DNA of 64,000 nt, taken from the NCBI GenBank assembly GCA_030737835.1, contig CM060856.1:20333941-20397940 (forward strand). The letters are read 5' to 3'. The number at the start of each line of letters is the position of its first letter. Position 1 is the first letter of the stretch. Positions 25,507 to 50,400 of this stretch are shown here, piece after piece. The stretch is from Acorus gramineus (Eukaryota; Streptophyta; Magnoliopsida; Acorales; Acoraceae). The translations under genes were made by a program, and so were the position numbers. The notes under the pieces were generated by a model, which worked only from the letters and a program-made list of their open reading frames with translations, was not told the DNA's origin and ran no database searches.

Positions 25507-27765
25507 CTATTGAACCATGGCTAAGAAGGACCCGGCTGTGGTCGTCGTCTGCGCCGCGACATTCCCTCCCCCGTTCGAGGGAGCGTTGTTCGCGTTCGCC
25601 GGCGGCCGGGTCTGGAACTGGATCTGATACGCCATCTTATCATTCTCATCTTCGTCATCGTCTTCGTCGTCTTCTCCGTCGATATTGTCACTGTCGTAGT
25701 CATCCATCCCAATCTGGTGTTGTTGATTCTGGTGATGCTCCATCAACTCCTTCATAATGTCTTCTGGCTTCAATCCAACAACAATTCGATCAATTGGATG
25801 AAATTCATTCCCACCCAGATATTCAAACCCAAAATTTAATGAAATTCAGATAGCTCGCTTACCTTTTTAAGCGTCCCTCCCTCTTCCATTCCTCCATTGC
25901 TCGTCTGGGTCGGTACACCACCACCGTCGCTGTTTCTGTTGTTTTTGTTGTTGTTCTCATCGTTTTGGTTCTTCGTCTCCGTCTCAATTTGAGTCTGGGT
26001 CGGTGGCGGGGGCTGCTGCGGGGGCAGAGGCATGATCGCCAACACATCAGCAGCACTCTTGTCTTGATCCGTCGCGGTGTCGTGGTCGTGCCTGCTTTGG
26101 TTTCCGCTGCTGCTGCCAGCACCGCTGCCGAGGACCTTCTTGCGGTAGAGTGCGTCGAGTTGGTGGAAGTAAGGGCAGGTCTTGGCGTCCTCCGGCCTCT
26201 TCTTGTTGCTCTCCTTCACCTTCTTGAAGTACTTGTTGATATTCTCCCACTTCTCCTTGCACCTCTTCGAGCTCCGGTTGTACCCCAATCGCTGCATCCC
26301 CGCCGATATCTCCTCCCAAAGTGGCCCTTTCGGCCCCGCCTCCTGGTATCTCGTCTCGAGCCCGCTCCGGAGCTTTATCAGCGCGTGCACCTCCGACTTC
26401 GGCCACCTAGATGACGCCATATCAAAACCCCCTCCACTGCCGCCGCCAGTGGTGGTGACAATTGCCATTTCATGTTGGGGTGGGACTTCCTGTATTGGCA
26501 TGACCTCCGCCGGAGGTTGTCGAGGTTGTGGCGGAGGAGGAGGTGGTGGTGATGGTGATGGTGGTATGGGTTGTTGTTGTTGTTGGGGGAGGGGGATGGA
26601 GTGGCCGGTGATCTTCTGGAGGAGGGAGAGGATGGCGGAGTCACGGGAGGCCGAGAGGGAGCGCTCCTGCGCGAGGAGGTCGTGCTCGCGCGTGAGGCGC
26701 GCCATCTCCTGGCGCTTCCACGCCTCCTCCCTGATCATCCTGTCCTGCTCCCTCTTCTCCATCGTCTCCAAGAACCTCTGCTGCATCGCCTCCTGCCTCT
26801 CCATCACCTGCTTCATCAACCCGTCGAAGAAGCTCATCATCTTCCTGCTCGTCGACGACGACCTCTTCCTCTTCCGCCCGCTCCCCACCACATCCTCCGT
26901 CTCCTCGTCCGACTCCGACTCCTCCTTCGAAGACGAGTTCGACGAGAAGCTGATCCCCGCCGTCGGATCCGCCGCGGAAGGCTCCGCCGGCATCACGAGT
27001 GGGGGAGCGGAGGAGATCGGCATCGGGTGGGGCTGGGGGCGGCCGGTGACGGGCGGGACGGATGACATGGTGGGTGCACCGAGGACTCCGATTGGGGCGG
27101 CGGCGGCGGCCGTGGTGGTAGCTGCGATAGGGGTTGCTGAGGAGGAGGCACCGGCGGCGGAGGCGCTGTGAAGGGCCTCTAACTGGGAGAAGAAGCGGTA
27201 GTTCTTGCCGTCCTGGCGTCCGGCGCGGCCCTCCTTAGTGCGCTTGTAGTACTTGTGGACGTTCTCGAACTTCTCCTTGCATTTTTTAGCGCTCCTTGTG
27301 TAACCCAACTCGGCTAGCTTTCTGTGAAATGAAAATGAAAATGAAATTTTTTTCAGATGTTATTATAGATTGATAGTAGTGGTGGTGATGATGATCACAT
27401 GTCTATATTTTTTATAAAAAAAAAAAAAAAAAAAAAGAAAGAAAAAAAAAAAGAAAGAATAAAAAGTGAAAGTGAAGAAGGATTGGTTTTTAATGGATTA
27501 AAAAATTGGGGAATAAATTTAGATGTGAAAAACTGGGATTGGTTGGGATTGATGCACTGCGGATCTGGGGATGAAAAAAAGAAAAAATAAATAAAATAAA
27601 ATAAAATAAAAGATGCCGTTGGTCTCTCGTGATGAGAGATCTGAAAGAGAAGGGTTTTAAGAGGAGGAACTTTTTTTTTAAAAAAAAAAAAAATCTAAAA
27701 ATGAACAAAAACACAATAACAACATCTCAGTAGTCTCCGTAGTACGAACGATCCAATGTTTTTTT

Positions 27766-27796
<31 letters not shown>

Positions 27797-28227
27797 GGAA
27801 GAGAGAGAGAGAGAGAGAATTGGAACCTGGAGACGTCCTCCCAAAGAGGGCCTTTGAGGGTGGCGTCGCGAAAGGCGGAGTCCATCTCGGACCGGATCTT
27901 GAGAAGCGCAAGCGTCTCCTGCCGTGGCCACCGGTTCCCGGACACGCCGCCCCTCTCCATCTCCTCGCCCGCTGCCGCCAGCGCGTCCTCGTACACCGCC
28001 GCACCGTAATTTCCCCCGCCGCCGCCCAATTCTTCAAAATTCGGCGGCCGAGAAGATGATGGTGGAGGTGGGCGGCTGCTTATTGGGGAGGCCGCCTCCG
28101 GAGGCGGCTGTTGTTGCAAATGCTCGATGACGTGAGGTCTGTTGGCGGCGGCGGTGGAGGAGGAGGAGAAGGGAGCCATGTCGGGAGGGACGGCGCCGTA
28201 TTGGGACCCTCCTCCTTGTTGTTGCAT
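25507..28227 (-). CDS. GTL1: GTL1/GT-2-type trihelix transcription factor, complete, three exons
   Basis: Three exons join into a 706-residue protein: 28227-27827, 27321-25863 and 25767-25507. Splice signals are CCAG/GTTCC, TTTCACAG/A, AAG/GTAAGC and GATTGAAG/C, and the phases agree. The protein has two trihelix (MYB-like) DNA-binding domains. The N-terminal one is at about residues 97-187 (NRWPRQETLALL, then KKCKEKFENVHKYYKRTKEG). The C-terminal one is at 439-528 (SRWPKSEVHALIKLR, then KRCKEKWENINKYFKKVKES). Between them are a GRKRKRS nuclear signal (282-288), a coiled-coil helix (about 293-363) and Pro/Gln-rich linkers. The tail has KPEDIMKEL-like sequence, an acidic stretch and a final FLAMVQ. 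As I recall, Arabidopsis GTL1 ends in closely similar sequence. GT-2 proteins bind GT elements; GTL1 represses genes of endoreduplication, trichome growth and stomatal density. I favour GTL1 over GT-2, DF1 or PTL because of the tail and the ASPISSRPP motif near residue 46. Confidence 0.9.
27322..27826 (-). other. Intron 1 of the GTL1-like gene with composite homopolymer tract
   Basis: The intron splits the first trihelix after DVSR, the usual place in GT-2 family genes. On the plus strand, T17 (27759-27775), G23 (27776-27798) and a (GA)n run (27799-27819) lie in succession and end about seven bases from the 5' splice site. A second A-rich tract is at 27418-27460. The T-, G- and A-rich runs make the apparent open frames here meaningless. 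Confidence 0.85.
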
Positions 28228-28274
28228 CTTTGCAAAATTTGGGGAAATAAAAAATAAAAAAATCCCACTAAATT

Positions 28275-28361
28275 TTAACTACACCCACTTAGTGTTGAAA
28301 TTGAGGGGTTTTGAGGTGTGGGTGTGGTGTGGGAGTCTCTCTTTCTCCCTCCCTGGCTCAT
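28275..28361 (-). CDS. Upstream ORF in the GTL1-like 5' leader, 28 residues
   Basis: It is the first and only ATG I find between the presumed transcription start (about 28626) and the main ATG. It encodes a 28-residue peptide beginning MSQGGRKRDSHTT and ending STLSGCS, and it stops 47 nt before the main start. No function or conservation is known to me. Its position means scanning ribosomes would meet it first. Reality as a translated ORF is an inference. Confidence 0.45.
   Translation of the reverse strand: MSQGGRKRDSHTTPTPQNPSISTLSGCS

Positions 28362-41514: not shown

Positions 41515-41566
<52 letters not shown>
41515..41566. repeat. (GA)26 microsatellite
   Basis: About 52 bp of uninterrupted GA on the plus strand. 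It explains the Arg/Glu and Leu/Ser repeats in overlapping frames. Confidence 0.95.
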
Positions 41567-41567
<1 letters not shown>

Positions 41568-41889
41568 GAATGTGGCGGTGGCGGTGGCGGCGGAGGAGGG
41601 GGAGGGCTTTGGACGCGCGTACCGTCTGGTTTTTTGGGAGGGCTTTCTGGAATTCGAATGGAGGATTGGAGAAGGCATCGAACGTGCGATGGTGGGATCG
41701 GAAAAGCGTTCCGTCTCGGGCCCAAATTAATGGAAATTTTTCATTTCGGTGCGTACCGATGTGATTTTTATTATTTCAGTTTCAGCTCTCACTCAAATTT
41801 ATATTTAAATAAAAAATTAATTAGATGTACATAAAAACACTCATGTAATAACAATAAATTCTTTAATTTTTTTTTATTTTTTTTAGGTC

Positions 41890-42850
41890 CCTAAATTTGC
41901 GGTGATATTTTATTTGGATCCTATCATCCAACTTCTATCCATTTTATTTTTTTTTCTTTTTTTTACCCACAAATTAATATAAATTATCTCTATCTCTCCC
42001 AACCTCTCTTTTTCTCTTCTACACAACTGAACAATATATGAGACCACCTCCACCAACCCTTTATTGCGTCGATCTCAACCCCAACACCGATCGCTCCCTC
42101 GGATCTCTCCCAACCGTGTCCCGCGAGCCATCTTCTGGTTTTGTGTCATATTGTGTACACTGTTATTCCTAATATGTACACTGTTATACCTGTTACACGT
42201 TGTATGTGTTACATTGCGTACACTATTGCGCACATTGTGTACACTGTTATACCTTTTACAGATATCAGATTTTGTGTTACACTATGTACATTGTTATGCC
42301 CAATGTGTACACTGTTATACCTGTTACATGTTCTGTGTGTTACATTGCGTACACTGTTATATTCATTTTGTACACTGTTATACATGTAACATGTTAGACT
42401 CACGAACGGAGTCGCGAGAGGAGGTAGAGCTCACGAGAGGGGGTAAGGCTCAAGGACGGGTTGCGAGAGGGGGTTAGGCTCGCAGATGGGGGTCGTAAAA
42501 AAGGGTTGGGCTCGCAGACGAAGTCAAGAGAAGGGGGTTGGGCTAACGGACGGGAGACAATCGGGGGATGCAATCGGCGTTGGGGTTGAGATCGGTGCAA
42601 TGGAGGAGCTGGTGGAGGTGATTTCACAACTTGTTGAGTGATTTTGGGGAGAAAGGGAGAGGTTGGAGGAGATAGAGAGGCAAATGATGTTTATTTAAGG
42701 ATAAAAGAGGAAGAGAAAAAATAGAATGGATGGAAGTTGGATAGAAGGACCTAAATAAAATACCACCACTAACTTGAAAATCTAAATAAAAACCAATGGA
42801 CCTATTGTAATTACAGATGTGCCCCCAGGACCTCAAATTAATTTCCCCTA
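41890..42850. mobile_element. Mutator-like element carrying two tandem arrays
   Basis: The left side (about 41885-41950) reads AGGTCCCTAAATTTGCGGTG, then ATTTTATTTGGATCC and CAACTTCTATCCATTTTAT. The right side (about 42715-42845) holds the inverted counterpart, extended outward to a GGGGAAATTAATTTG-like end. The left end seems shorter than the right, and no duplication was found. Between the ends are the 21-bp-grid array (42155-42375) and a second array of roughly 33-bp GGCTCGCAGACG..GAGAGGGGGTT units (about 42395-42560). No transposase. Confidence 0.6.
42155..42381. repeat. Array of GTACACTGTTAT cores on a 21-bp grid
   Basis: GTACA begins at 42155, 42176, 42218, 42239, 42286, 42307, 42349 and 42370. 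The intervals are 21, 42, 21, 47, 21, 42 and 21. Most cores continue CTGTTAT. The spaces between pairs carry TGTGTTACATTGC-like sequence. Pairs of cores thus repeat every 63-68 bp. Confidence 0.9.
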
Positions 42851-42886
42851 TTAAAATCTCTTTAAAAATTTAAATAAAAATTTCTT

Positions 42887-48869: not shown

Positions 48870-49739
48870 TGGGTTGAGTGGGGTCGTTTAGAGGAGGTGG
48901 TGCACATGTCTTGGACCGCGAACTCGGGTATCCTCAACGGGGCACGCCGAATTGCTTTTAAGTTGCGGAGATTGAAGCGGGCACTGTGAGGTTGGAGTCG
49001 GGAAGCGGTACGCGGGAGGCGGGAGAGCAAAATAGCATGCCTTGAGCAGATTGTGAGATGGGATAGGGCGGAGGAGAGCAGGTCTCTCTTGGATGTTGAC
49101 CGGGCAACAAGGAAGGCATGCTGCGAGAGGCTGACGGAGATCCTCCGGATGCAGGAAAAGGAACGGAGACAGAAGTCTAAGGCCCTTAGACTCAAGCTTG
49201 GTGATAACAACACCAAATACTTCTATACAGTTGCCACTTTTTGTTGGCAAGCCAACCGTATTCGAAGTCTGACATTTGACGATGATTGTATAGACGAGGA
49301 GGGGGGCTTGCACTCCAGGGTGGAGGCACACCTTCGATAGGCTTTCTCAAGGAGGATAGCATGGCACCCGGACTGGGAATTTGAGTTGTTGCAAAGCATT
49401 CCGATGGAGGCCTTTTCGGCTTTGGACGCCCTCTTTGAAGAGATGGAGATCAAGTGGGTGCTCTTTGGGGTTGAGGGGGACAAATCCCTAGGCCCTGATG
49501 GGTTTGGGGTATGTTTTTACCGGTGTTTTTGAAAGATAGTGAGAGATGATATTCTTGATTTGTTTGAAGAGTTCTTTGAAGGCCGAGACAGATCAATGTT
49601 CGTGCTCCTTCATAAGGAGGGAGCAACGTTGATCGAGGACTTCTGGCCTATTTGCTTGGTAAATGATTGTTATATGCTACTCTCTAAGGTCTTGGAAAAT
49701 CGGATGTGAGGATTGGGTGACCGTCTCTTTGAAGCATCG

Positions 49740-50400
49740 TAGTCGGCCTTCATTCCTGTTCGTGCGCAGCAAGACAACTTTCTAGCCTCTCAAGAGCTAA
49801 TCTCCGCATTATTGCAGGACAAGAGGAGTGGGTTCGCACTTTCGCACTAAAGTTGGACTTCGCTAAGGCATATGACAAAGTGGACTGGGGTTTCTTGTTG
49901 CATGTCCTTTGGTTGCACGGGTTCAAGAACAACTGGGTGCGTATGTTTGAGCAATGTATATCGACGGCCAACACGTTTGTGGTTCTTAATGGTGAGCTAC
50001 ACGACTTCTTCCCAATCAACAGGGGCCTACGACAGGGAGACCCCTTGTCCACATTCTTATTCCTCATCATTGCCAACGTCTTGAGCTACATGTGCAGGGA
50101 GGCCTCTTGGTAGGGATGGCTCGCAGGGGCTGCAAGGATTGTAGGGGACACTTGCTTCCCCATTCTTCAATATGCTGACGACACTATCCTCCTCGGAGAT
50201 GCAGAGGTGGAGAACATCCGGGGTTTCTATTTTATATTAAAAATCTTTGAATTATTGTCAAACCTCGGGATAAACTTCCACAAGAGCGTCCTTATCCCGT
50301 TGAACATTGACCCCAAGGGGGCGTCCATCCTTGCAGGCATCGTAGGATGTCCAATCCAGAAGCTTTCTTATTGACAGCTAGGGTTCCCGCTGGTGAAGAA
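49740..50400 (+). pseudogene. LINE reverse transcriptase core, broken
   Basis: PVRAQQDNFLASQELISALL is followed by a frameshift at about 49839-49853, where TTCGCAC is duplicated. Then come LDFAKAYDKVDWGFLLH, NRGLRQGDPLSTFLF and, after a TAG at 50112, QYADDTILLGDAEV. The Asp of DFAKAYD and the YADD box, both catalytic in the family, are kept. Further stops lie at 50372 and 50408. Later frames up to 50947 carry thumb-like and connection sequence. Confidence 0.8.

What the first reader, a model, noticed from the sequence alone, without database searches (positions are those of the whole stretch)
42155..42381. GTACACTGTTAT cores on an exact 21-bp grid inside a Mutator-like element
Eight GTACA starts have spacings of 21, 42, 21, 47, 21, 42 and 21. 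Pairs 21 bp apart (two helical turns) repeat every 63-68 bp, with a skipped third slot. Face-of-helix phasing like this is what a protein-binding array looks like, and Mutator-like elements are known to carry subterminal repeats read by their own proteins. The period is also 7 codons, so a coding repeat (YTVIP heptads) cannot be excluded.
Basis: partly seen in the sequence, partly recalled or inferred. Interest (0 to 1): 0.7.

Follow-up and report, generated by a model that had tools for sequence, protein, structure and literature searches.

The report
Motif array shared by jumping genes
A short DNA word repeated every 21 letters inside a plant jumping gene turns up, with the same spacing but different letters in between, in other jumping genes of the same genome, one kind of which carries a mobility gene, which is what a landing strip for a protein of the jumping gene would look like.

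Summary
In detail: eight GTACA starts at 42155-42370, spacings 21,42,21,47,21,42,21. They lie in a ~1-kb non-autonomous Mutator-like element (41811-42848, long TIRs, 9-10 bp TSDs) with hundreds of candidate copies in its 399-Mb plant genome. Within this family the array behaves like a hierarchical minisatellite (21, 63, 131 bp): spacers are nearly as conserved as cores, whole 21-bp units are lost, and a 47-bp gap breaks helical phase. A genome-wide pattern search changed this: 418 exact core pairs, 0 in the reversed control; of the 100 listed, 66 are 21 bp apart and 27 are 42. The 66 spacers fall into 10 unlike groups, at least two of them the window family's own. The core sits on the same grid in other Mutator-like elements, including a family with a MURA-type transposase, where arrays lie at the transposase's 3' side, near an Ulp1-like gene in the copies read. 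Best reading: a cis motif array read by a MULE-lineage protein, most like the VANC-target motifs of Arabidopsis VANDALs (known kind, new motif and pitch). Binding, the reading protein and any effect on silencing are untested; passive repeat growth remains a serious rival.

The parts
41811..42848 (+). Non-autonomous Mutator-like element (whole)
   Evidence: Homology with other copies starts and stops here; terminus mapped at 41811 and 42847
41802..41810 (+). Left target-site duplication TATTTAAAT (8 of 9 match to the right one)
   Evidence: family-wide 9-10 bp TSD excess over mispaired control
42849..42857 (+). Right target-site duplication TATTAAAAT
41812..42111 (+). Left terminal inverted repeat
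   Evidence: arms 308 of 328 columns identical in consensus, 226 of 312 in window copy
42546..42848 (-). Right terminal inverted repeat
42139..42395 (+). Core array: a 131-bp block in two diverged copies, each of two 63-68 bp units
   Evidence: consensus lag identities 0.47 (21), 0.58 (63), 0.89 (131)
42155..42165 (+). core 1
42176..42186 (+). core 2
42218..42228 (+). core 3 (changed: GTACACTATTG)
42239..42249 (+). core 4
42286..42296 (+). core 5 (changed: GTACATTGTTA)
42307..42317 (+). core 6
42349..42359 (+). core 7
42370..42380 (+). core 8
42396..42545 (+). Second, GC-rich tandem array of 28-32 bp units in the consensus (GGCTCACGGACGGGGTCGCGAGAGGGGGTTG), without the core
   Evidence: highest deletion rate of the element (10.2% of cells)

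Best explanation
The tract is a motif array of a Mutator-like element (MULE) lineage. An 11-12 bp word, GTACACTGTTA(T/A), stands head to tail, mostly 21 bp apart, in several element families that otherwise differ: the non-autonomous family of the window, other small elements with the same termini, and a family encoding a MURA-type transposase. I propose that a sequence-specific DNA-binding protein of the lineage reads it, most likely an anti-silencing factor of the VANC type (VANDAL elements of Arabidopsis), which would land at dense same-orientation motifs and keep the element demethylated. Tandem duplication makes and remakes the array, which gives the 21/63/131 hierarchy, while the core and the pitch are held. 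Shown: core, pitch, spacer drift, presence in several element families, adjacency to transposase genes. Inferred: protein binding, who encodes the protein, anti-silencing. The window copy is an old, C-to-T-decayed copy and need not be active. (The odds given here cover any protein of the lineage and so overlap with the transposase rival.)
For: Pattern GTACACTGTTA-N(4-34)-GTACACTGTTA: 208 + 210 matches, reversed control 0 + 0. Spacings of the 100 listed: 66 at 21, 27 at 42, 7 at others (40, 40, 20, 20, 35, 26, 28); the 66 have 45 distinct spacers in 10 greedy groups at <=50% identity, of which at least two (CGCATATTAT, CGTTAAGTTT) are the window family's own (L078, L037). In 8 loci that I picked for unlike spacers: 121 cores (<=2 substitutions) in 21 kb against 7 in mononucleotide shuffles; one orientation dominates in 7 of 8, L085 has both; distances up to 110 bp peak at 21 (49), 42 (24), 63 (23). 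49 adjacent pairs: core identity 0.88 (partly by the search rule), spacer 0.51 (0.375 between loci, 0.30 by composition); 20 non-redundant units: spacer columns 0.01-0.32 bits except the two that flank the core (0.47, 0.81), and the next core's GTA reappears at +21 to +23 (0.32, 0.64, 0.46 bits), which the search rule does not force. 4 of the 8 loci share the window element's termini (L084, L085, L087, L089). L085 has core pairs in inverted orientation near both ends. L082/L086: SWIM finger ORFs beside 25 and 28 cores; the relative L091 has PF03108, PF10551, PF00872; Ulp1 PF02902 in L086 on the other strand. On the part of the genome listed, 7 of 8 transposase C-termini with >=80% identity lie within 500 bp of an exact core pair (chance of lying within 1.5 kb: 0.2%), each time at the gene's 3' side and antisense to it (coordinates and strands). 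In the consensus an 11-bp run is invariant in 8 of 8 units (run permutation p=0.002; the two 131-bp halves are not independent, but each half alone gives p=0.002). VANC21 targets are dense same-orientation motifs in tandem repeats in introns, intergenic and terminal non-coding DNA (PMC5735166, passages).
Against: Between copies of the window family cores are hardly better kept than spacers (6.5% v 7.3%). Adjacent spacers are partly homologous (0.51), and some neighbouring units are identical, so tandem duplication explains part of the pitch. Half-turn break and small shifts. No VANC-like gene was shown (the DUF1985 search did not complete). The motif is only 7 of 9 like YAGTATTAY, which 5% of random 12-mers reach. 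No shared TIR was found between the window element and the transposase family: none in L082/L086 or in the 1.2 kb upstream of L082. None of 4 relatives at 65-73% identity had a listed core pair nearby, and one of the 8 at >=80% did not (two shorter hits at 66-68%, C1:20496868 and C2:4361053, were not entered, and by eye no listed pair is near them).
Confidence: 0.5

Rival explanations
1. Passive minisatellite: one 21-bp unit was tandemly duplicated (21, then 63, then 131 bp) in an ancestral MULE and inherited by descendants; regular spacing is only a by-product and nothing binds.
For: Hierarchy of periods; whole-unit losses in 10 of 40 TIR-selected loci, 4 more otherwise rearranged; loci L052 and L064 share flanks but have 7 and 4 cores; identical neighbouring units in L082 and L083 show fresh expansion; spacers as conserved as cores within the family. 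Tandem repeats inside TIR elements have precedents (Tetris PMC4079207, Galileo PMC3573991; passages).
Against: Spacers drifted far between elements (10 groups; 0.375 v 0.30 by composition) while 11 bp and a 10-nt gap stayed; pairs with 1-3 of 10 spacer bases alike still sit at exactly 21 (L087); core-only invariance between units.
Confidence: 0.35
2. Transposase or accessory-protein binding sites for transposition, as with secondary sites in Galileo TIR repeats.
For: L085 carries core pairs in inverted orientation about 210 and 145 bp from its two ends; in L084 and in the window element the cores start just inside the left TIR; secondary transposase sites in TIR repeats are reported for Galileo (PMC3573991, passage).
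Against: No similarity between array and TIR (p 0.74 and 0.78); in the window family the array is on one side only; in L082/L086 the cores lie beside and between genes, and no end was found near them.
Confidence: 0.2
3. Host transcription-factor sites (GTAC is the SBP/SPL core and CTGTTA fits a MYB core, both recalled, not tested) co-opted by MULEs.
For: Sequence resemblance only, from recall.
Against: Not tested; no reason is known to me why a host factor would need the same 11-bp word on a 21-bp pitch.
Confidence: 0.08
4. Coding heptad repeat (YTVIP).
For: 21 bp is 7 codons; the consensus has a 273-codon open stretch (245 from an ATG), about the 99th percentile of block shuffles.
Against: No synonymous excess in any of 6 frames over the array (z between -0.97 and 1.89); the 47-bp gap and 2-bp shifts break the frame; no Pfam domain above cut-off in the two ORFs tried.
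Confidence: 0.02
5. RNA-level signal (hairpin or siRNA source).
For: Minus strand of the consensus array folds better than shuffles (z -3.5; window copy -2.2); TIRs are long inverted repeats.
Against: Plus strand z -0.12 and -1.56; one weak sub-threshold Rfam match only; does not explain spacer drift at constant pitch. No covariation test was run.
Confidence: 0.05

Closest known systems
VANC-target motif arrays of VANDAL MULEs, Arabidopsis (Hosaka 2017 PMC5735166; Sasaki 2023 PMC10398659; passages read)
   Same: MULEs; short motif in many same-orientation copies in tandem repeats of introns and intergenic DNA; arrays expand and contract
   Different: Motif here GTACACTGTTA(T/A), not YAGTATTAY or AGTTGTCC/AGTTGTAC; strict 21-bp pitch (the term 'spacing' had 0 occurrences in the 2017 main text); one motif in several families; no VANC gene shown here
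Kaonashi-type MULEs with an Ulp1-like gene (name seen in search listings; content recalled)
   Same: Transposase SWIM ORF and Ulp1-like exon on opposite strands in L086
   Different: Terminal structure and full gene set not seen here
Tetris foldback element of Drosophila virilis (PMC4079207, abstract and passages)
   Same: Long TIRs, 8-10 bp TSD, Mutator assignment, internal tandem repeats, no transposase
   Different: 220-bp repeats lie in the TIRs and share 37 bp with the TIR end; here the array is outside the TIR and unlike it
Tm1 Mutator/Foldback elements of Meloidogyne (PMC3169594, abstract and passages)
   Same: 9-bp TSD, variable number of short (about 14-bp) tandem repeats
   Different: Repeats build the TIR itself
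Galileo (PMC3573991, passages)
   Same: Tandem repeats said to hold secondary transposase sites
   Different: P superfamily; repeats in TIR, about 210 bp

Membership tests
Mutator-like element (MULE) | 9-bp (8-11) target-site duplication | tested here: met
   20 of 28 copies tested have >=8 of 9 matching bases against 17% in mispaired flanks (of 40 aligned, 8 dropped for a truncated or different end and 4 skipped for a missing anchor)
Mutator-like element (MULE) | Terminal inverted repeats | tested here: met
   308 of 328 columns identical in consensus
Mutator-like element (MULE) | MULE transposase in an element with the same termini | tested here: inconclusive
   Transposase family shares the core array but its termini were not reached; no TIR match in L082/L086 or in 1.2 kb beside L082
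VANC-target array | Dense same-orientation short motif in tandem repeats of MULE non-coding DNA | tested here: met
   that the DNA is non-coding is inferred from the exon reading
VANC-target array | Motif YAGTATTAY or AGTTGTCC/AGTTGTAC | tested here: not met
   best stretch CACTGTTAT, 7 of 9 to YAGTATTAY; the VANC6 motifs were compared by eye only
VANC-target array | Element lineage encodes a VANC protein (DUF1985, DUF287) | not tested
   PF09331 search unanswered; DUF287 not tried
VANC-target array | Protein binds motif and removes methylation | not testable with these tools
   needs EMSA or ChIP and bisulfite data
Coding tandem repeat | Conserved frame with synonymous excess | tested here: not met
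Foldback element with repeats inside TIRs | Tandem repeats make up the TIR | tested here: not met
   array is on one side only and unlike the TIR

The most novel reading that the evidence does not exclude
A second, independent anti-silencing (or transposition-control) code in plant MULEs: one 11-bp word on a fixed two-turn pitch shared by a transposase-encoding, Ulp1-bearing MULE family and by non-autonomous families that ride on it by displaying the same landing array, so that the array, and not only the TIR, marks an element as a member.
Probability: 0.3. Interest if true: 0.85.

Novelty: new variant of a known kind. Interest (0 to 1): 0.6.

Why it matters
In the papers I saw, VANC-type sequence-specific anti-silencing is described for Arabidopsis VANDALs. 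A shared motif with a rigid 21-bp pitch, present in elements with and without a transposase, would give a direct test of whether non-autonomous elements copy the landing site of an autonomous one, and of whether the reading protein binds as a dimer or polymer along one face of the helix.

Tried and rejected
Coding test: no signal in six frames. TIR origin of the array: none found. Rfam: only a sub-threshold mir-12 match. Pfam on two ORFs through the array: nothing above cut-off. Core against spacer divergence between close copies: AT sites 1.6% v 2.9%, column test p=0.027, fewer transversions in cores; set aside because misaligned units can inflate spacer changes and the subset (22 copies) was chosen for recognisable cores. 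Array dispensability: one array-less copy (L050) has a junction that no other place spans among the 40 scored of 414 candidates, so an array-less mobile subfamily is not shown. Seven-core copies do not group on a TIR tree of 60 copies, but that tree is star-like. Anchored array lengths were discarded, since the right anchor lies in repeats. A systematic comparison of TIR hits with PF10551 hits was not made; one search scored 150 of 1162 candidates. My first conclusion, an ordinary minisatellite in a MITE, was dropped.

Full report
The window is plant-like eukaryotic DNA from a 398.6-Mb assembly, G000:C10:20333941-20397940. No species name is available from the tools; 'plant' is my inference from its elements and genes.

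OBSERVATION. GTACA stands at the eight stated positions and the spacings are right; 6 of 8 cores are exactly GTACACTGTTAT. TRF finds a period-63 (score 253) and a better period-131 (score 364) tandem array between 42139 and 42395.

ELEMENT. Inverted repeats flank the array. Alignment of the window copy with 39 others found by a query that contained the array (40 scored of 380 candidates) shows homology stopping near 41811 and 42848. Copies are flanked by 9-10 bp duplications: 20 of 28 tested copies have at least 8 of 9 matching bases, against 17% when flanks of different copies are paired (12 of 40 were not testable). The consensus stretch is 1073 bp, with TIR arms alike in 308 of 328 columns. 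This is a non-autonomous Mutator-like element; the window copy is decayed (arms 226 of 312).

WITHIN THE FAMILY. The array-containing query favours intact arrays (of its 40 copies 22 have the exact eight-core grid, 6 are on it with a core unrecognised, 12 are shifted by 1-4 bp), so I repeated the search with the TIR alone (40 scored of 565 candidates). Of those 40 loci, 7 have the exact eight-core grid, 7 are on the grid with at least one unrecognised core, 9 have it shifted by 1-4 bp, 10 have lost or rejoined whole units, 4 are otherwise rearranged and 3 have no array found (L054 shows one TIR only). L052 and L064 share flanks but carry 7 and 4 cores. Divergence from the consensus over 66 copies (a few near-duplicates included) is 6.5% in cores, 7.3% in spacers and 8.6-9.0% in TIRs. 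Two points did not fit: between units of the consensus all differences avoid an 11-bp run (p=0.002), and at least part of the array is kept in 37 of 40 TIR-selected loci.

The array alone as query scored 40 of 353 candidates. The eight of these places not seen before were fetched: all eight lie beside element TIR sequence, seven with TIR matches on both sides and one (L074) on one side within the stretch held.

ACROSS FAMILIES. A pattern search for two exact cores 15-45 bp apart gave 208 forward and 210 reverse matches, with 0 for the reversed control. Of the 100 places listed (C1, C2 and C3 to 17.97 Mb) 66 are at 21 bp, 27 at 42 and 7 at other distances; the 66 spacers form 10 greedy groups at 50% identity or less. 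Many of the 66 belong to the window family, and at least two of the ten groups do. I fetched eight loci chosen because their spacers were unlike the window's, so they are a picked sample. They hold 121 cores (up to 2 substitutions) where shuffles give 7. Four of eight share the window element's termini: L084, an element of about 475 bp with cores just inside its left TIR; L085, about 860 bp, with core pairs in inverted orientation near both ends; L087; and L089. L082, L083, L086 and L088 show no convincing shared terminus in what was fetched. Adjacent spacers are 0.51 identical, against 0.375 between loci and 0.30 by composition. So tandem duplication and drift both act, but core and pitch outlast the spacers.

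TRANSPOSASE FAMILY. L082 and L086 are 94% alike over 1.3 kb. Each has an ORF antisense to the cores with a SWIM zinc finger (1.5e-8 and 6.2e-8), next to 25 and 28 cores, and L086 has an Ulp1 C48 exon on the opposite strand to that ORF (7.8e-7); L082 reads alike there by translation. The upstream part of a relative at C2:25714450-25715930 (L091) gives PF10551 (5.8e-20), PF03108 (5e-16) and PF00872 (3.3e-8), that is, the domains of a MURA-type transposase. A whole-genome search with the SWIM ORF lists more than a dozen copies of at least 94% identity, several in frames of 653-663 aa (150 scored of 560 candidates). Where both lists overlap, 7 of 8 copies of at least 80% identity lie within 500 bp of an exact core pair; the eighth (C1:18231310) is 46 kb from one; none of 4 at 65-73% is near one (chance of lying within 1.5 kb 0.2%). 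In L082 the cores stand after an Ulp1-like exon that ends at a GTGAGT-like junction, again after the putative catalytic-Cys exon, and then up to the 3' end of the transposase ORF (my reading). They would thus be intronic or intergenic rather than subterminal.

MECHANISM. A word kept in one orientation at fixed pitch in apparently non-coding DNA of a mobile-element lineage, with its surroundings free to drift, is what a protein target looks like. [quoted passage not shown] PMC10398659, passages). I file this as working like a VANC-target array, not as a proven member: the motif differs and no VANC gene was found or excluded, as the search did not complete. Transposase-site and passive-repeat readings stay open.

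LITERATURE. A literal search for the 11-mer returned 7 papers, none of which looks like a transposon paper by its title (listing only). I found no description of this motif, within that library and those searches only.

Noticed in passing
G000:C10:20333012-20333578, 363 bp upstream of window position 1: A 41% identical relative of the MULE transposase C-terminus (one TAA inside) lies just outside the window.
   Followed up: no
window 42396-42545: Second tandem array, GC-rich, consensus periods 31,31,28,32,32, close to three helical turns, with many indels between copies.
   Followed up: partly
window 25836-27359 (-) and 27727-28278 (-): Myb/SANT-like (PF13837, trihelix type by recall) gene or gene pair.
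   Followed up: no
window 49733-50113 (+): Reverse transcriptase fragment (PF00078, 1e-11), probably LINE-like given neighbouring ORFs (the LINE label is my inference).
   Followed up: no
window 41515-41566: Perfect (GA)26 microsatellite about 245 bp before the element.
   Followed up: no
window 42139-42395 (-): Minus strand of the array folds better than shuffles (consensus z -3.5, window copy z -2.2).
   Followed up: partly
L052 and L064: Loci with the same flanks but 7 and 4 cores, as expected from array contraction in place after a segmental duplication.
   Followed up: partly
L087:413-2386: Core pairs at 21 bp scattered over 2 kb with almost unrelated spacers (1-3 of 10 alike) beside a right end like the window element's.
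   Followed up: partly
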